A DNA stretch of 31,572 nucleotides from a virus, in IMG/VR virus record IMGVR_UViG_3300013307_000038, positions 1-31,572 of that record, one strand, 5' to 3'. Positions 2,506 to 22,514 of this stretch are shown here, piece after piece. The translations under genes and the position numbers were made by a program. Below the pieces are notes generated by a model. It was given only the letters and a program-made list of their open reading frames with translations, made no database searches and was not told the DNA's origin. Numbering within the stretch: position 1 is the first letter of the stretch; the number at the start of each line of letters is the position of its first letter.

Positions 2506-2546
2506 GTGGGTGGTGGTCATGCGACCGCCCGGTGACCACCACCCAC
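2506..2546 (+). terminator. Strong GC-rich hairpin between SSB-like gene and polymerase
   Basis: The arms 2506-2519 (GTGGGTGGTGGTCA) and 2533-2546 are perfect reverse complements over 14 bp with a 13-nt loop. The structure begins 5 nt after the upstream stop codon and lies wholly before the chosen polymerase start. No T-tract follows, so it could be a U-less actinobacterial-type terminator, an attenuator or an mRNA-stabilising hairpin. Confidence 0.7.
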
Positions 2547-2567
2547 CCCCAGGGAAGTAGCCGCCCC

Positions 2568-5336
2568 GTGAAGATCATCCCCACTGCCCGCTTCTGGTCA
2601 GCCCACACCCACAGCAGGTACAGCGCCGAGGACGCGCTGCCCAAGGTCGAACAGATCGTCGCCAAGGCCGCGAAGATGGGTCAGAAGGCCATCGGTCTGA
2701 CCGATCACGGCAACATGGCTGGCTCTGTGGAGCTGTACAAGGCTGCGTCCAAGGCCGGGATCGCTCCGTTCCCTGGGTCAGAGCTGTACTTCGTGCCCGA
2801 CACCACCGCGCACCGGCACGACCGGGCTCGCAAGGACGGTGAGAAGGCCCAGCGCTATCACCTGGGTGTACTGGCGTACACCACCGAGGGCTACGAGAAC
2901 CTGGTCGCGCTGTCGACGGCGACCCACAAGAACCACTTCCACAAGCCACTGGTCGACTTCAAGATGCTCGCCCAGTTCGCTGAGGACGGGCGTACCAAGG
3001 GGCTGGCGATCACCACCGGCTGCTACTTCGGGTACGCCGCGCAACTGATGGTCACCCGAGGCCCGGACGAGGTGAAGCAGTTCCTGGCCACGCTGGAGAG
3101 CTGGTTCCCCGGCTCGGTGTATGTCGAAGGACAGAACCACCACATCGATCACGGAGATGGCTGGAATGACGACCTACTGGCGGACGCGATGCTCGGCGTG
3201 GCTCAAGAGATGGGCCTCCCGTTCATCATCACCCAGGACTCCCACTACCTCGAACCAACAGACAAGGAACTCCATGAAACCCTCAAGCAGCTCGTCGCCT
3301 TCGGGCCCGACCCTGACGACGCCGTTTTTCCCGGAGACGGGTTCCATCTCGCAGATGATCGATGGATGCGAGACCATCACGGGGAAGGTCGGCTTGAGCG
3401 CGGCCTTGAAGGACTGGCAGATCTCCTCGGCAAGCATCGACTCTCGATCCCGGTCCTTGACTCTTACTCTTACTCGGTCCCCAGCGTCGTCTCCGACCCC
3501 CGAACCATCATGGAACGACGTTGTCTGGCGGAACTGGAACGCCGAGGCCTCAAGGGACGCTACCTGGAGAAGCTGGCTGAAGAGTTCGAGGTCATCAACG
3601 CGGTAGACATGGCGGGCTACATGGTCCTCGTCGCCCAGGTCACTGACTGGATGCGCGAGAACGGTGTGGTCTTCCAGACCCGTGGCTCGGCTGCGGGCTC
3701 GATGGTCTGCTGGCTGATGGGGATCACCCAGGTCGACCCGATCAAGTGGGACCTGCGCTTCGAGCGCTTCCTCTCCAAGGACCGGACCAAGCCCCCGGAC
3801 ATCGATCTGGACATCGCACATGACCGTCGCGATGAGCTGATCGAGTGGTTGGACACCAAGTTCACCGCGCACCAGATCGGCTCGTGGATGAAGTACAGCC
3901 TGGATGACTCCGAGGACGAGGAGGACGAGGGCGGGTCCCTGATGCGGAAGTACTTCTCCACCGCTACCAAGGCTGGGCACACCTACGAGAAGCTCTCCGA
4001 CATTCCGGCCCACGACCGCGAGCTGCTCAACAAGCTCTCCGACGTGGAGACCTACAAGGGCATGGGCACCAACGCCGCTGGGGTGGTGCTGACTAGTACG
4101 CCGCGCGAGTTCGACAAGCTGGTCCCGCTGGCGTACATGAGCCGTGGTGGCTACGTGAGCCAGTACCACCTGAAGTCCATCGAGGACCTGGGTCTGGTCA
4201 AACTCGACGTGCTGGGCTCCAAGACCCTGACGGTGCTACGCCGGTGTACCGACATCATGGACTGGCCAGTGGCCAAGCTCGATGAGATCCCACTACGCGA
4301 CGCCAAGGTCTACAAGACCATCGCCTCAGGTGAGACCGCTGGGATCTTCCAACTGGAGGGCAACAGCTCCAAGTGGGGCACCAAGTCCCTGCGCCCTGAC
4401 CGGATCGCCGACGTGATCGCCGCGATGGCGCTGTTCCGACCCGGCGTACAGGCAGTCCAGGGCGACAAGCACTACATCGCTCGCAAGCATGGCCGTGAGC
4501 AGGTCCCGACACGCCATGAACTGATAGACCGTGTGACCAGGGACACACACGGGATCATGCTGTACCAGGAGCAGGTGATCGACATCCTGCGTGGCCTGGG
4601 GATGGGCGCTGACGACCTCACAGCCTTCCTGAAGGCGGTCAAGGCATCGAACTCCAACGTCGCTGAGGCAGGGCGCGTCATCGCCTCCTACAAGGGCTGG
4701 ATCGACCAGCGCTGTGGAGAGATCGGGATGACTGATGAAGATCGACAGTTCCTTGATGATGCATTCGCTGGCTTCGCTGAGTACGGCTTCAACCGCGCTC
4801 ACGCGACGGTGTACGGGCTTACCGCGTACCGCTGCGCGTGGCTTGCTACACACCATCCAGTGGAGTTTCACGCAGCACTACTCGCGGTCGCAGCCGGTGA
4901 CAAGAGCAAGGAGCCGAAGTACCTGCGGGCTACCCGCTCGCGGGGAGTTCGTGTTCTACCGCCGTCCCTCAACATCAGCGGAGCGACGTACACCGCCGAC
5001 CAAGAGCGCGGGGTCATCCGAAAGGGACTTCGCAGCCTGGACGGGATCGGTGAAGTTACAGCGGGGGTCATTGCGTCCTTGGCACCCTTCCGTGACCTGG
5101 ACGATCTGGTGGAACGAGCCCCGTCCCGACCTGTCAGTGGAGGGAAGAACTACGACGGGACCCCAGAGTCCCTCAACGGGGTCCTCGGAAAGTTGAGAGA
5201 CCAAGGAATGCTCGATCTGCTGATCGTGCGAAAGGAGCGACGCGATGACTCACGACTGGTGGAGCGCTCTGAGGGGGTGGGATCGGAACGTGTTCGCAGA
5301 CATCTCAAGGTCGTGCGAGGCGATGGTGCTGCTTGA
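2568..5336 (+). CDS. dnaE: DNA polymerase III alpha subunit, DnaE type with intact PHP domain
   Basis: This is the replicative polymerase of the phage. From GTG 2568 it has 922 residues. The PHP domain keeps all nine expected metal ligands: H13, H15, D22, H47, E72, H98, C152, D224 and H226. The palm has the catalytic motif PPDIDLD (D411, D413) and a third aspartate at D547 (KLDVLG). Other DnaE marks are QTRGSAAGS, GIFQLEG and LYQEQV. An acidic insert (DDSEDEEDE) sits near residues 446-454. The protein is shorter than cellular DnaE (about 1160 residues) and seems to lack the C-terminal OB/tau-binding region. GTG 2532 is also open, but it lies in the upstream hairpin, whereas GTG 2568 follows AGGGAAG by 10 nt and gives the usual N-terminus. 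The last 92 nt overlap the HNH gene. Confidence 0.93.
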   Translation: MKIIPTARFWSAHTHSRYSAEDALPKVEQIVAKAAKMGQKAIGLTDHGNMAGSVELYKAASKAGIAPFPGSELYFVPDTTAHRHDRARKDGEKAQRYHLGVLAYTTEGYENLVALSTATHKNHFHKPLVDFKMLAQFAEDGRTKGLAITTGCYFGYAAQLMVTRGPDEVKQFLATLESWFPGSVYVEGQNHHIDHGDGWNDDLLADAMLGVAQEMGLPFIITQDSHYLEPTDKELHETLKQLVAFGPDPDDAVFPGDGFHLADDRWMRDHHGEGRLERGLEGLADLLGKHRLSIPVLDSYSYSVPSVVSDPRTIMERRCLAELERRGLKGRYLEKLAEEFEVINAVDMAGYMVLVAQVTDWMRENGVVFQTRGSAAGSMVCWLMGITQVDPIKWDLRFERFLSKDRTKPPDIDLDIAHDRRDELIEWLDTKFTAHQIGSWMKYSLDDSEDEEDEGGSLMRKYFSTATKAGHTYEKLSDIPAHDRELLNKLSDVETYKGMGTNAAGVVLTSTPREFDKLVPLAYMSRGGYVSQYHLKSIEDLGLVKLDVLGSKTLTVLRRCTDIMDWPVAKLDEIPLRDAKVYKTIASGETAGIFQLEGNSSKWGTKSLRPDRIADVIAAMALFRPGVQAVQGDKHYIARKHGREQVPTRHELIDRVTRDTHGIMLYQEQVIDILRGLGMGADDLTAFLKAVKASNSNVAEAGRVIASYKGWIDQRCGEIGMTDEDRQFLDDAFAGFAEYGFNRAHATVYGLTAYRCAWLATHHPVEFHAALLAVAAGDKSKEPKYLRATRSRGVRVLPPSLNISGATYTADQERGVIRKGLRSLDGIGEVTAGVIASLAPFRDLDDLVERAPSRPVSGGKNYDGTPESLNGVLGKLRDQGMLDLLIVRKERRDDSRLVERSEGVGSERVRRHLKVVRGDGAA

Positions 5337-8828: not shown

Positions 8829-9037
8829 AGATCACTCCTACAGAGGTGGAGACCAGAGCCACCCAGCGCGAGAAGGTACTGACCGCACTGAAGGGTGGAC
8901 CGATCAGCAACTACGAGCTGATCAAGATCTGCCAGCGGTTCGGCGCGAGGATTCATGAACTACGCGAAGAAGGTCATGTGATCACCACGCGCAAGATCAA
9001 CGCGACAAAGACCCTCTATACCTATGGAGGGGAGTAG
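8825..9037 (+). CDS. Winged-helix HTH protein
   Basis: The protein has 70 residues. Almost the whole chain forms a winged helix: QREKVLTALKGGPISNYELI, then ICQRFGARIHELREEGHVITT, the pattern of small phage winged-helix proteins in which the recognition helix precedes the LR-x-x-G wing. It is probably a DNA-binding regulator. It starts with GTG overlapping the previous stop and is the last gene of the early small-gene block before a 68-nt gap. Confidence 0.7.
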   Translation: MKITPTEVETRATQREKVLTALKGGPISNYELIKICQRFGARIHELREEGHVITTRKINATKTLYTYGGE

Positions 9038-9105
9038 GCTGCTAAGCAGTACACCAAGCACTGACACCACAAACCGTACACATTACAAAGGGGTGTGCTA
9101 AGGAT
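9038..9105 (+). promoter_or_regulatory. Intergenic gap with weak promoter-like element
   Basis: This 68-nt gap is lower in GC than its surroundings. It holds a short palindrome CTGCT-A-AGCAG (9039-9049), a CTGACA box (9061-9066) and TTACAA (9083-9088) at 16-nt spacing, plus AAAGGGG (9087-9093) that may serve as ribosome site for the resolvase gene. The promoter matches are weak. Confidence 0.25.
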
Positions 9106-9636
9106 GTGAGTAGGGTGCGTGTTGTAGGCGTAGATCTCGGCACCAGGAAAGCTTCAGTAGCTCAGTTCCACATTGATGCGCGTGGAGTGATCAGGCTCTA
9201 CGACGTGACTACGTTCTATGTTCACCCAGCAGTGCGCCCAAAGGAACTCGCCACGCTGACAACCACGATGATTGATGCCTGCAAGGGCGCGAACTACGTG
9301 TTCATCGAGGAGCCCTTGGTAGGGCGCGGCGTGAAGGCCTCGATGCAGATCAGCCAGGTGGCAGGAGCAGTGATGGCGATGCTGGGCAACCACGGCATCC
9401 ACACCGAGCTGGTGAACGTGAAGACGTGGAAGAAGGACATCTGCGGGAACGGAAACGCCAGCAAGGAAGATGTCGATATGTGGTTATCTACCACACACCC
9501 GTCGTACGCTGAGGCCTGTGGAGACGACCGACATCGCCAGGACAACGTCGATGCCTGCTGTATCGGCCTGTTCGGAGTCGCCACCCTTGAACGGGCAAAC
9601 CACGGCCTCTTGGAAGACGTTAGATCAGTTCCTTGA
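9106..9636 (+). CDS. RuvC-like Holliday junction resolvase
   Basis: The protein has 176 residues. The RNase H-type fold is shown by VVGVDLGTRKAS (D10), YVFIEEP (E68/E69) and RQDNVDA (D146, D149), the four acidic residues of RuvC-type resolvases. KTWKKDICGNGNASKEDV matches the conserved loop before the last motif. It should cut Holliday or branched DNA during recombination or before packaging. The start may be GTG 9106 or GTG 9118; AAAGGGG lies 12 nt before the first. Codons here are less GC-rich than in neighbouring genes. The stop lies at the base of a 12-bp-arm hairpin. Confidence 0.85.
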   Translation: MSRVRVVGVDLGTRKASVAQFHIDARGVIRLYDVTTFYVHPAVRPKELATLTTTMIDACKGANYVFIEEPLVGRGVKASMQISQVAGAVMAMLGNHGIHTELVNVKTWKKDICGNGNASKEDVDMWLSTTHPSYAEACGDDRHRQDNVDACCIGLFGVATLERANHGLLEDVRSVP

Positions 9637-10162
9637 ACCCAACGCTCGCGAGCACTCAACCCTCGACACGGAGCGTTGGGTTTCCTATTCCCTAGAGGAC
9701 CTGTACCCGGCCTGGCAGAAGCAGGCGCACTGCGCGGGCACTGGGGTGAACAACTACTTCGGCGACGAAGAGCAGCAACCCACGATGAGCATCAAGCAGG
9801 TGCGCAACGCCGCGAAGCTGTGTGATGTGTGTCCTGTGTTCACAGAGTGCCTACGCTGGTCACTAGAGATGCGTGAGGAGTACGGCGTCTGGGCGGGTAC
9901 CTCTGGGCGTGTACGACGACGGATCTTCGCGCTACTGGACAACGACGAGACGACCGTCGATGACGTGATCGAGGTGTTCCTCAATGGTGGAGGAGAACGG
10001 TTCCGCTCCGAAGCCGCGTATGCGGCCAGTGTCGAGCGCGGACGACGAGCCGAAGGTGAAGACGCCTCGGGGTGGTGCGAGTGGCCTAGAGAAGAAGCCC
10101 GTGGAAGGCCGCGTGGTGGACTCGATAGGAGTAGCGGCCTTCAAGCTGCGGCTGGAGGGTAA
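9587..10162 (+). CDS. WhiB-family Fe-S regulator with AT-hook-like tail
   Basis: From TTG 9587 (GGAG nine nt upstream) the protein has 191 residues; ATG 9551 is an alternative. The WhiB signature is clear: C49, C79, C82 and C88 (C-x2-C-x5-C in LCDVCPVFTEC), which bind a [4Fe-4S] cluster, then YGVWAGTS, the turn that contacts sigma factor. Such proteins are limited to actinobacteria and their phages and control transcription. At residues 172-178 the tail has RGRPRGG, a canonical AT-hook core as in the host WhiB7 type. This tail is encoded in a 179-nt overlap with the terminase small-subunit gene. The first 50 nt overlap the resolvase, and a terminator-like hairpin lies inside the 5' coding part. 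Confidence 0.75.
   Translation: MNGQTTASWKTLDQFLEPNAREHSTLDTERWVSYSLEDLYPAWQKQAHCAGTGVNNYFGDEEQQPTMSIKQVRNAAKLCDVCPVFTECLRWSLEMREEYGVWAGTSGRVRRRIFALLDNDETTVDDVIEVFLNGGGERFRSEAAYAASVERGRRAEGEDASGWCEWPREEARGRPRGGLDRSSGLQAAAGG
9636..9682 (+). terminator. Perfect 12-bp-arm hairpin after resolvase stop
   Basis: Arms AACCCAACGCTC (9636-9647) and 9671-9682 are exact reverse complements with a 23-nt loop, followed by TCC. The left arm begins on the last base of the resolvase stop codon, the usual place of an intrinsic terminator. It also lies within the likely 5' coding part of the WhiB gene, so it may act as an attenuator for it. Confidence 0.7.
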
Positions 10163-10508
10163 GCGGCTGTGGGAGATCGCTGAGATCCTCGATGTCACCG
10201 AGAACGAGGTCGAGCTGGCGATCAACAGCCGGATGAAGACCGAACGCGCCCTGATCACCTCAGGTGAGCGCGAAGGGATCATCGCGCTACAGGATGCGCG
10301 TTACGAAGCGATGATCGCAGCCCACTGGCCCGCAGCCATGATGGGCGATGACAAGAGCAGCGCGATCATCCTCAAGACGATGCACCAGAAGGAGCAGCTC
10401 CTCCAGCTCGCAGCTCTGGACCCGGAGACCTCCCAGCGCACGGTCCTTGTGATCGGCGGCAAGGAGGCGGATTACGTCCGGGCGCTGAAGGAGGCATCCG
10501 GGCAATGA
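9984..10508 (+). CDS. Candidate terminase small subunit
   Basis: The protein has 174 residues. The first 45 or so are charged, Pro-rich and probably disordered. Residues 55-84 (LRLEGKRLWEIAEILDVTEN and on) form a helix-turn-helix. A helical part follows with EGIIALQDARYEAMIAAHWPAAMMGDDKSSAIILKTM-type spacing, the pattern of phage small terminases that recognise DNA and assemble the packaging motor. GAGGTG lies 7 nt before ATG 9984. Residues 1-59 are encoded on DNA that also encodes the WhiB tail. The large subunit is about 10.5 kb downstream, which is unusual. It could instead be a regulatory HTH protein. Confidence 0.6.
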   Translation: MVEENGSAPKPRMRPVSSADDEPKVKTPRGGASGLEKKPVEGRVVDSIGVAAFKLRLEGKRLWEIAEILDVTENEVELAINSRMKTERALITSGEREGIIALQDARYEAMIAAHWPAAMMGDDKSSAIILKTMHQKEQLLQLAALDPETSQRTVLVIGGKEADYVRALKEASGQ

Positions 10509-11086
10509 CCCTTGTATCCGAAGCAGGCGCGTTCATTCAGGCGATGGCCTGGCCTCGGATCTATCACCTGGACTGGCCGCGTTGGAAGCACGAAGAGAAC
10601 AGCATCCAGGGGATCGGTCTAGCCAAGCGGCTGGGATTCACCGGGATCGACCTGGACCTGCTGATCACCAAAGACAGCGTGATCGTGGTCTGTCACTGGC
10701 ACCGACCACAGCTCAAGGACAACTTCTTCGACCCGCACCATCGGATTGCGGTGCGTAGGGCTGTGGAGCAGTTGACCTGGGCTGAGCTACAGACGCTGCG
10801 CTCCAAGGACCATGATCATCACTACCGGATCATCCGGGTGGAGCGTGCCCTGGCTGAATGTGCACGGCGCAGGATCAAGCCGGTCCTCGAACCCAAGGAC
10901 GACAAGCGCTTCGAGCAGGACTGGCCGTGGGTGGTCATCGTGGCCTACGCGCGTCAGCTCGGGATCTTGAACCGGGTCTATGTGTACTCGATCCGCAACC
11001 TGAACACCCCAGGTGCTGGCGTACGCCGGGTAGCAGCGGCGCGTAAGAACGGCATCCCGATCCGACACAGCAAGGTGATCCATTGA
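10505..11086 (+). CDS. Glycerophosphodiester phosphodiesterase-like protein
   Basis: The protein has 193 residues. Residues 30-65 (EENSIQGIGLAKRLGFTGID, then LDLLITKDSVIVVCHW) match the core of GDPD enzymes: an EN pair, an acidic D-x-D in place of E-x-D, TKD and the second catalytic His at H64. The usual first catalytic HRG motif is not present; H21 is the only candidate. The rest continues as a TIM-barrel-like alternation ending in GIPIRHSKVIH. A full enzyme hydrolyses glycerophosphodiesters and may attack teichoic acid-like polymers. Given the missing motif and a place among tail genes, it may bind or modify cell-envelope glycans. ATG 10505 follows AAGGAGG and overlaps the previous stop. 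Confidence 0.6.
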   Translation: MTLVSEAGAFIQAMAWPRIYHLDWPRWKHEENSIQGIGLAKRLGFTGIDLDLLITKDSVIVVCHWHRPQLKDNFFDPHHRIAVRRAVEQLTWAELQTLRSKDHDHHYRIIRVERALAECARRRIKPVLEPKDDKRFEQDWPWVVIVAYARQLGILNRVYVYSIRNLNTPGAGVRRVAAARKNGIPIRHSKVIH

Positions 11087-11594: not shown

Positions 11595-12290
11595 ATGGCT
11601 AACCAAGTACGGCTCATCAACGGTGGCGCGATCCAGGTCCGCACCGGCATTCTGCAAGGCGTGGGTCCGCAAGGACCTCGTGGTCTGGTTGGTCCTTCTG
11701 GGCCGATGGGCGATCCCGGTCCTGCTGGTCCGGTTGGCCCTCCAGGCTCGATCACCGAGGTCAGCTCCAAGTTCAAGGTCTCATCCCCGCAGTCGATCAC
11801 CGCTGACACTGACACGCAGGTGTCGTTCGCTGACGTGACCTTTGATGACCTGTCTGCGCACAGTTCTTCCGTGAACTTCGTCCTCCATGAGGTCGGCGAC
11901 TACCTGATCACCGCTTGGGTGAAGATGGAGAAGCCCTCCAACGATGGTGATGGGCTGCGCGCGCTGTGGGTCACTAGCGAGACCAACGGCACCCTGGTTC
12001 GCCATCAGACGCTGGCGGTGGCCGATGACGCCACCTACATCAACCTCAACACGGTGCATCGCTCCACCGTGGTCGATGAGGTTCTGCACGTCTCCTGCCG
12101 CTCAGGAGATGACCTGGCGCTGGCACTTTCAGACGGCGCGCTCACATTCACCCGCACAGGCTCGGGCCCTGTCGGCGCAACTGGTCCGATGGGTCCTGCT
12201 GGCCCTGTCGGTCCCGCTGGTCCTACTGGTCCTACAGGCCCTGCTGGTACGCCAGGCACGTACACCACGTACGGCGACATCCACAGCTAA
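11595..12290 (+). CDS. Collagen-like / C1q-like minor tail protein
   Basis: The protein has 231 residues in three parts. Residues 22-51 hold ten Gly-X-Y triplets rich in Pro. Residues 55-185 form a jelly-roll-like domain similar to C1q/TNF domains (VSFADVTFDD, GDYLITAWVKM, LHVSCRSGDDLALAL). Residues 191-221 hold a second block of ten Gly-X-Y triplets. Collagen-like segments make trimers without host hydroxylation in phage fibres, so this is likely a trimeric fibre or appendage with the globular domain in the middle. AGGGGAT precedes ATG 11595. It lies between the small beta-sandwich gene and the large fibre gene, supporting a tail-tip role. Confidence 0.8.
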   Translation: MANQVRLINGGAIQVRTGILQGVGPQGPRGLVGPSGPMGDPGPAGPVGPPGSITEVSSKFKVSSPQSITADTDTQVSFADVTFDDLSAHSSSVNFVLHEVGDYLITAWVKMEKPSNDGDGLRALWVTSETNGTLVRHQTLAVADDATYINLNTVHRSTVVDEVLHVSCRSGDDLALALSDGALTFTRTGSGPVGATGPMGPAGPVGPAGPTGPTGPAGTPGTYTTYGDIHS

Positions 12291-20714: not shown

Positions 20715-21018
20715 GAACATCTCAGTGATCACTGTTCAGGGGCGGCTCGTCGATGACAACGGGCCGCTCTCTGGGCAGATCTGGTTCATCCCCACCAAGC
20801 CCGCCTTCACCTATGGAGACAAGCTCTTCGCGGTGAAAGGCGGGCATTGTTGTCTGCACGACGGGACGTTCAGCGTCGAACTGACCCCGACAGACACCTT
20901 CTCAGGACAACCCTTCTACTACGACGTGTACTTCGAGACCATTCACTGGCGACTCAAGGTCGAAGGTGAAGGTGAAGTACAGCTTGCTGACCTGCTACCC
21001 AAGAAGGCGGATAGTTGA
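20713..21018 (+). CDS. Small beta-sandwich protein before the large terminase
   Basis: The protein has 101 residues from ATG 20713, or 97 from GTG 20725. The sequence is strand-rich (VITVQGRLVDDNGPLSGQIW, GTFSVELTPTD, FYYDVYFETI), typical of an Ig-like or transthyretin-like beta-sandwich. Comparable domains occur in minor tail and head-decoration proteins. No Shine-Dalgarno precedes ATG 20713, and that codon overlaps the promoter-like element. If the element is real, the transcript would begin near 20721 and translation would have to use GTG 20725. Its stop overlaps the TTG start of the terminase gene. Confidence 0.65.
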   Translation: MNISVITVQGRLVDDNGPLSGQIWFIPTKPAFTYGDKLFAVKGGHCCLHDGTFSVELTPTDTFSGQPFYYDVYFETIHWRLKVEGEGEVQLADLLPKKADS

Positions 21019-22514
21019 GCCTCTACCTGGAGCGTGAGCCCAGGACCGATGAGGAGCTGTACCACCTGGTCAAGGTGATGTGGGGTCACACGATCCCGCG
21101 CACCAAGGTCTGTGCCGACCACGACGCTCCCTTCGATGCCTTCGCGACCGCCTACTTCAACCGCGAGCCACAGATCCTGATCCACGGTTCGCGTGGTTTG
21201 TCCGGTAAGTCCCGGACGATGTCGATCCTCGGATTGTCGATGGCAGCTATCAAGGGCTCGGACGTGAACATCCTCGGGGGCTCACTGAACCAGTCCCAGA
21301 ACATCCACGACACGATGCGTGACGCCTGGGAGCATCGCAACGCTCCGTCGTACTTGGTTCAAGACGAGTCGATGTCGCTGATCCGACTCACCAACGGCGC
21401 GAAGATCCGACCGCTGACGGCTTCCCAGAAGACTGTCCGTGGCCCGCACCCGCCGACGCTGCTGCTCGATGAGATCGACGAGATGGACCAGGCCATCTTC
21501 GACGCGGCCAAGGGTCAGCCGATGCCGCAGACCAACAAGGTCACCGGGGACTACATCCAGGCGCAGACCGCGATGTCGAGCACCTGGCAGTACCCGGACA
21601 AGACCTTCGCCAACGAGTACAAGCGGTTCCAGGAGGAGGGTCTGCCGATCTTCACCTGGTGCTTCCGGGAGACCTCCAACCCAGTCGACGGCTGGCTGGA
21701 CCCCAGCTTCATCGAGCAGAAGAAGCGCGAGATCCCTGCCGAGATGTGGCGGGTGGAGTACGAGCTGGGTGAGCCGAGCATCGGCAACCGTGCCTTCGAC
21801 TCAGAGAAGGTCGAGGAGTGCTTCAGCCTGCCGACTGAGGCGATCAAGAAGAAGGTCGCCAAGGACTACGAGGAGTACCAGTTCGCCGAGCCCCGGATGG
21901 ACACCGACTACGTGGTGGCTGCGGACTGGGCCAAGGCTCAAGACTTCACCGTGTTCACCGTGTACGCCTGCTCGCAGATGCCCGCGCGGGTGGTCTACTG
22001 GGTGAAGATGAGGCGACGCCCCTACCCGGTGATGATCGAGCACTTCAACCGGCTGATCAAGGCCTACCGAGCTGAAGCCATCCACGACGCCACCGGACTA
22101 GGGGGCGTGGTTGCCGACTACATCGACACCCGCGCCTATGGGTTTGTGATGAGCGGGATGGTCCGCGACAACATGCTCAGTGAGTACATCAACGCAGTGG
22201 AGAACGGGAAGGTCCGGGCTCCTCGGATCGACAGCTTCTACAAGGCGCACCTGTACTGCTCGGTCGAGGATGTCTACTCGCGCGGTAAGGAGTTCCACCT
22301 GCCTGACGAGGTCTGCTCAATGGCGCTGGGCTGGAACCTGATCGGGCACCGGGCGATTGCCGCCGATCCGCTCACCTTCGCTGGCGACGGCAAGCAGAAC
22401 TGGATGGCGACCTCGGTTGAGCACAACAGGGCCGCTGACCGGAAGAGCGGCTGGATCGGCGAGGCTCACAACAAGACCAAGGAAGCAGAGTCCGAGTTCA
22501 GCTTCATGGTGTGA
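21015..22514 (+). CDS. terL: Terminase large subunit
   Basis: The protein has 499 residues from TTG 21015, which overlaps the previous TGA and follows AAGGCGG. The ATPase part has a terminase-type Walker A (SRGLSGKS, K65) and Walker B (TLLLDEIDEM, D152-E153). The nuclease part, of RNase H fold, begins with VVAADWAKAQDF (D304) and includes AIHDATGLGG (D358). It drives ATP-powered DNA packaging into the prohead and cuts the concatemer. The candidate small subunit is about 10.5 kb upstream, not adjacent. The 3' end overlaps the antisense HNH gene by 11 nt. Confidence 0.9.
   Translation: MSLYLEREPRTDEELYHLVKVMWGHTIPRTKVCADHDAPFDAFATAYFNREPQILIHGSRGLSGKSRTMSILGLSMAAIKGSDVNILGGSLNQSQNIHDTMRDAWEHRNAPSYLVQDESMSLIRLTNGAKIRPLTASQKTVRGPHPPTLLLDEIDEMDQAIFDAAKGQPMPQTNKVTGDYIQAQTAMSSTWQYPDKTFANEYKRFQEEGLPIFTWCFRETSNPVDGWLDPSFIEQKKREIPAEMWRVEYELGEPSIGNRAFDSEKVEECFSLPTEAIKKKVAKDYEEYQFAEPRMDTDYVVAADWAKAQDFTVFTVYACSQMPARVVYWVKMRRRPYPVMIEHFNRLIKAYRAEAIHDATGLGGVVADYIDTRAYGFVMSGMVRDNMLSEYINAVENGKVRAPRIDSFYKAHLYCSVEDVYSRGKEFHLPDEVCSMALGWNLIGHRAIAADPLTFAGDGKQNWMATSVEHNRAADRKSGWIGEAHNKTKEAESEFSFMV

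What the first reader, a model, noticed from the sequence alone, without database searches (positions are those of the whole stretch)
9984..10162. WhiB AT-hook tail encoded in frame overlap with terminase small subunit
For 179 nt the same DNA appears to encode the C-terminal tail of the WhiB-like protein, including RGRPRGG, and residues 1-59 of the candidate terminase small subunit in another frame. AT-hooks are known from host WhiB7, where they aid promoter binding. If both frames are used, the regulator acquired a DNA-binding tail by overprinting a disordered packaging-protein N-terminus.
Basis: partly seen in the sequence, partly recalled or inferred. Interest (0 to 1): 0.62.

Follow-up and report, generated by a model that had tools for sequence, protein, structure and literature searches.

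The report
Phage regulator gene overlapping packaging gene
In a family of uncultured phages two neighbouring genes really do share about 100-200 letters of DNA in different reading frames, but the extra tail this gives the regulator drifts freely and the DNA-gripping 'AT-hook' seen in it occurs in one genome only, so it looks like a by-product rather than a conserved invention.

Summary
The WhiB-like frame (stop 10160-10162) and the small ORF 9984-10508 share exactly 179 nt. Twenty-five distinct related phage loci, the window included, were compared. All start the downstream gene in the same register inside whiB behind a Shine-Dalgarno-like site, and whiB runs on 98-203 nt. The overlap is therefore real and old, not a gene-calling error.

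Selection on the WhiB amino-acid sequence reaches only about 11 codons into the overlap (motif G-x-G-[D/E]-x-[Y/F]-R in the main clade). Beyond that the tail varies freely, synonymous divergence of the downstream gene is not reduced, and RGRPR occurs in the window alone. A GRP core appears in 2 of 25 tails. Synonymous resampling gives RGRP in 1.4% and GRP in 3.7% of trials. Outgroup whiB-terS pairs mostly overlap by only 4-20 nt.

The WhiB frame does look translated to its end: it is open more often than expected (23/25 vs 15.9), and its stop is retained at a synonymous site of the downstream gene (T in 17/17).

Best reading: a run-on of whiB into terS whose tail sequence is a by-product. The AT-hook idea is not supported. 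'Terminase small subunit' is plausible but unproven.

The parts
9106..9636 (+). RuvC-like Holliday junction resolvase gene directly upstream; its 3' end overlaps whiB
   Evidence: PF02075 E=2e-6, phrog_159 E=4e-20; found upstream of whiB in nearly all relatives
9551..10162 (+). whiB-like gene; start at ATG 9551 is a guess (other in-frame starts: GTG 9518, TTG 9587); G-V-W-A-G turn at 9884-9898
   Evidence: PF02467 E=5e-17; 26-57% identity to 24 relatives over the full length
9971..9976 (+). Shine-Dalgarno-like GAGGTG for the downstream gene, lying inside whiB codons
   Evidence: SD-like site present at this start in all 25 derived loci
9984..10508 (+). candidate terminase small subunit (HTH protein); disordered N-terminus, HTH, helical hairpin
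   Evidence: phrog_645 E=6e-10, label 'Rnase E'; homologues are gene 1 of Microbacterium/Arthrobacter phages named HTH protein or terminase small subunit; model
9984..10162 (+). the 179-nt overlap
9983..10012 (+). overlap part A: end of the conserved WhiB sequence (NGGGERFRSE here, NGRGDTYRLP in relatives)
   Evidence: codon-position rates follow the WhiB frame
10013..10159 (+). overlap part B: the variable WhiB tail
   Evidence: no WhiB-frame constraint on sequence, frame kept open, low-confidence model
10100..10120 (+). RGRPRGG, AT-hook-like, unique to this genome
10160..10162 (+). WhiB stop TAA, made by GGT AAG (Gly-Lys) of the downstream gene just before its second HTH helix

Best explanation
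whiB and the downstream HTH gene (candidate terS) are both translated, with a real same-strand overlap. The downstream ribosome-binding site lies in the last WhiB-specific codons and its start codon sits inside whiB. In the ancestor whiB probably ended near the terS start (8-20 nt overlap, as in outgroups); loss of that stop, or an upstream move of the terS start, let whiB run on until the first stop that the terS codons offer, in the HTH. Shown: the overlap, the conserved start, WhiB-frame constraint ending about 11 codons in, the excess of open frames and the retained stop. Inferred: that translation takes place, that the overlap couples the two genes, and that the tail after YR[LIV]P, including RGRPR, is a by-product of terS coding with no conserved function.
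For: Same register and SD site in 25/25 loci, and L099 and L120 have no other plausible start before the HTH. In part A of the 18-locus main clade, WhiB G, Y and R are kept and WhiB position 2 is slowest (0.17), while the downstream gene's position 2 (=WhiB position 3) is the fastest (0.34); L124 changed terS V-D-I to G-G-T while WhiB GDRYR stayed. In part B the codon-position profile is flat (0.44/0.44/0.40) and terS-synonymous divergence is 0.41 [0.32-0.51] against 0.30 [0.25-0.35] in single-coding terS. The WhiB frame is open to the HTH in 23/25 vs 15.9 expected. The stop is made by TCT/ACT-GA at one terS column in 17/17 loci, where TCT is 9/147 of Ser codons elsewhere and no other terS-only column has T in 8 or more; the window and L112-L114/L127 use GGT-A instead, and L120/L126 have an earlier TAG. 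Outgroups overlap by 4-20 nt. Fonseca et al. (PMC3887535) model such overlaps as mainly 3' elongation of the upstream gene without selection.
Against: The retained-stop test is modest (P=0.034 given an ancestral T; 0.23 in the slowest rate class). A flat codon-position profile could also come from weak constraint on both frames; WhiB-frame identity relative to TerS identity is somewhat higher in the last 20 tail codons than in the untranslated shadow. The excess of open frames says the tail is not wholly free. The derived set was chosen by having the long overlap. No expression data.
Confidence: 0.68

Rival explanations
1. The tail works as a sequence-tolerant disordered extension of WhiB: its presence or length matters, its residues do not.
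For: The WhiB frame is kept open and ended at a retained stop; length is fairly steady at 22-57 residues past part A; the modelled tail is low confidence.
Against: Outgroup WhiBs lack it. Steady length follows from stops lying in the conserved HTH. Keeping the frame open and stopped may only protect against long run-on: in 10 of 25 loci the terS codons after the stop hold no further WhiB-frame stop.
Confidence: 0.2
2. One reading: the tail is an AT-hook DNA-binding tail gained by overprinting, working like WhiB7's.
For: RGRPR core is present; WhiB7's C-terminal AT-hook is needed for its function (PMC3905903); a GRP core also occurs in L128.
Against: No RGRPR in 24 relatives, GRP in 2/25 tails, mean charge about neutral or acidic; 1.4% RGRP and 3.7% GRP by synonymous resampling. 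The WhiB7 box is KRPRGRPRK (PMC6282962), whereas here the core is flanked by EEA and GGLD and lies about 67 residues past the turn.
Confidence: 0.05
3. Artefact: the downstream gene starts later, or whiB ends earlier (sequencing error, mispredicted start).
For: Palleja et al. (PMC2478687) found no real co-directional overlap over 60 bp among 715 in prokaryotic genomes.
Against: 25 independent loci share start, SD and open frame, with codon-level evidence for both frames in part A.
Confidence: 0.05

Closest known systems
Long same-strand (terminal) overlapping genes in viruses and prokaryotes
   Same: Two neighbouring co-directional genes; the upstream 3' end reads into the downstream 5' end in another frame; modelled as 3' elongation after stop loss (PMC3887535)
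   Different: 98-203 nt and shared by a divergent family; 84% of viral overlaps are under 50 nt (PMC7017920), and the longest real bacterial co-directional one accepted by PMC2478687 is holD-rimI, up to 56 nt
WhiB7/WblC, the Wbl with a C-terminal AT-hook
   Same: Wbl fold signature (four Cys, G-[V/I]-W turn, basic block) and an RGRPR core in the C-terminus
   Different: Here GVWAG, not GVWGG; the hook is remote from the turn, has no basic flanks and is not conserved in the family
Actinobacteriophage WhiB regulators (PMC8612146; e.g. mycobacteriophage MooMoo, Che8)
   Same: Phage-borne Wbl, 27-39% identity in tblastn
   Different: Here whiB sits in a ruvC-whiB-terS cassette with long overlaps; none of the phage records covers 80% of this protein
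phrog_645 HTH proteins / putative terminase small subunits (Microbacterium phages Appa, Blett; Gordonia phage Jace)
   Same: HTH plus helical region; 26/26 members match phrog_645
   Different: In those phages it is gene 1; here terL lies about 10.5 kb downstream

Membership tests
WhiB-like (Wbl) proteins | Pfam PF02467 match above cut-off | tested here: met
   62.6 bits vs cut-off 23.6
WhiB-like (Wbl) proteins | Four cluster cysteines and G-[V/I]-W turn followed by basic block | tested here: met
   C61, C91, C94, C100 and GVWAG-TSGRVRRR; cysteines and turn Trp invariant in 25 loci
WhiB-like (Wbl) proteins | Fe-S cluster and sigma-A region 4 binding | not testable with these tools
   needs protein work
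WhiB7/WblC AT-hook subclass | AT-hook core RGRP with basic flanks in the C-terminus | tested here: not met
   core RGRPR present in the window but flanked by EEA/GGLD, absent from 24 relatives
WhiB7/WblC AT-hook subclass | Binding to AT-rich DNA upstream of -35 | not testable with these tools
   needs binding assay
Real same-strand gene overlap | Downstream start conserved in homologues with a ribosome-binding site | tested here: met
   25/25 loci
Real same-strand gene overlap | Selection in both frames across the overlap | tested here: inconclusive
   met for the first ~11 codons; beyond them only openness and the stop show selection
Terminase small subunit | N-terminal HTH and helical oligomerisation region | tested here: met
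   AlphaFold model with HTH and long helical hairpin; PDB fold hits match the HTH only, none at E<=0.001
Terminase small subunit | Family assigned to TerS in annotated phages | tested here: inconclusive
   homologues labelled terminase small subunit, HTH protein or 'Rnase E'; BFVD hit 'Terminase small subunit' E=7e-4, low TM-score
Terminase small subunit | Binds packaging site and TerL | not testable with these tools
   needs biochemistry

The most novel reading that the evidence does not exclude
The terS-encoded WhiB tail is a selected appendage: the family keeps the frame open and the stop in place because a disordered extension is useful, and in the window's lineage that extension has turned into a working AT-hook, a regulator gaining a DNA-binding module from a packaging gene's other reading frame.
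Probability: 0.05. Interest if true: 0.7.

Novelty: new member of a known kind. Interest (0 to 1): 0.34.

Why it matters
[quoted passage not shown] Here is one of 98-203 nt whose start, SD site, open frame and stop can be followed through 25 divergent loci, with the selected and the unselected part of the upstream protein cleanly separable. It is a good natural case for asking what keeps a long overlap in place. It also warns against reading motifs such as RGRPR in a shadow tail as functional.

Tried and rejected
No DNA-level match in the phage collection, and single-protein scans with WhiB and TerS found nothing in viral or genome contigs; the relatives came through TerL, then whole contigs, then alignment scans. 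A first open-frame test that ended at each observed stop was discarded because it is open by construction; one search uses a fixed HTH anchor instead. Codon-position tests on close pairs depend on gap placement (one search gives different order by alignment guide), so the main weight is. A terS downstream start was considered and rejected. Rfam finds nothing in 9000-10700. PDB sequence hits to the TerS profile cover only the HTH, or are designed helical proteins. The prophi91-4 whiB lies in a replication/toxin-antitoxin region and has no terS neighbour. A direct test of RGRPR in the window's own lineage was not possible: no close relative was found.

Full report
What is there. The window is a 31.6-kb virus record from IMG/VR. 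The WhiB frame ends at 10162, and an ORF of 174 codons starts at ATG 9984, so 179 nt are shared in two frames. The upstream protein is a true WhiB-family member (PF02467, E=5e-17). The downstream one matches only phrog_645, labelled 'Rnase E'.

Finding relatives. No phage record matches at DNA level. TerL of the window (21015-22514) has 73 relatives in viral contigs, and 24 of 37 whole contigs searched encode the small protein. In those loci it lies directly downstream of whiB, mostly with ruvC upstream. Alignment scans added more, giving 25 distinct loci with the long overlap, the window included, and outgroups L097, L098, L129, L132/L133, L136 and L203, where the overlap is 4-20 nt. L140 has a candidate start 71 nt upstream of the whiB stop and was left unresolved.

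The overlap is real. In all 25 loci the downstream start codon falls in the same register, 28 codons after the GVWAG turn (L108 and L109 start one codon earlier), with an SD-like site ahead of it inside whiB codons. In L099 and L120 there is no other plausible start before the HTH.

Where WhiB selection ends. In the 18-locus main clade the first ~11 overlap codons evolve like WhiB: position rates 0.29/0.17/0.34, with WhiB G, G, Y and R kept. In L124 the terS N-terminus changed from VAKVTDIGS to VAKGTGTGS while WhiB GEGDRYR stayed. A G-x4-Y motif is also seen in outgroup WhiBs (L097, L129, L136), where terS starts further downstream, so it belongs to WhiB proper. After that, the profile is flat and terS-synonymous divergence is 0.41 [0.32-0.51], against 0.30 [0.25-0.35] in single-coding terS. 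The tails differ in length and sequence, and the modelled tail is low confidence.

Signs that the frame is nevertheless read. Against synonymous resampling with a fixed anchor, 23 of 25 tails are open where 15.9 are expected (P=0.001); the third frame (12 vs 16.2) and single-coding terS (67 vs 63.2 of 100 windows) show no such excess. T in third position before AA/AG/GA codons is 2/158 in the tail against 32/456 before other codons (P=0.004), with no difference in single-coding terS. The stop is made at one Ser/Thr-[E/D] pair in 17 loci, always with T, though TCT is 9 of 147 Ser codons elsewhere; the window and four others use GGT-A; L120 and L126 have an earlier TAG, and L120 has lost the later T. 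The tree-based chance of keeping T in all 17 is 0.034, so this is support, not proof. Loci are related, which softens all these P values.

The AT-hook. RGRPR is in the window only; GRP also in L128. Resampling gives RGRP in 1.4% and GRP in 3.7%. WhiB7's hook is KRPRGRPRK (PMC6282962) and is required for function (PMC3905903); here the flanks are EEA and GGLD.

Origin. In a tree of concatenated WhiB and TerS most outgroups have short overlaps; L098/L132/L133, with 8-nt overlaps, may nest between L128 and the rest, so gain and loss of the long overlap cannot be ordered with confidence. Stop loss with 3' elongation is the commonest route in simulations (PMC3887535).

The downstream protein. The model has a disordered N-terminus, an HTH and a long helical hairpin. 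Relatives are gene 1 of Microbacterium and Arthrobacter phages under the names HTH protein, terminase small subunit or 'Rnase E'. Terminase small subunit is a fair working name, not a demonstrated one.

Verdict. A real, conserved long same-strand overlap; the tail sequence is most likely a by-product; the AT-hook interpretation is not supported.

Noticed in passing
9551-9636 and relatives: whiB also overlaps the end of ruvC; in L102, L105, L110 and L180 every usual start codon ahead of the first cysteine (bar one inside the domain in L110) lies well inside ruvC, so whiB appears overlapped at both ends.
   Followed up: partly
phrog_645: The 'Rnase E' label on this HTH / terminase-small-subunit-like family looks like a transferred misannotation; other records of the same genes say HTH protein.
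   Followed up: partly
9984-10508 and 21015-22514: The candidate terS is about 10.5 kb from terL, with structural genes between; a similar gap of roughly 11-13 kb is seen in several relatives.
   Followed up: partly
10505-11086; first ORF after terS in other loci: The gene right after terS differs between relatives: a GDPD-like phosphodiesterase here (PF03009 E=6e-9), a caspase-like start in L114, others in L117 and L127, suggesting a cargo site.
   Followed up: partly
11595-12290: ORF with collagen-like GPx repeats flanking a central domain.
   Followed up: no
2532-5336: Long ORF that reads like a DNA polymerase III alpha subunit, upstream of the ruvC-whiB-terS cassette; named by eye from its sequence only.
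   Followed up: no
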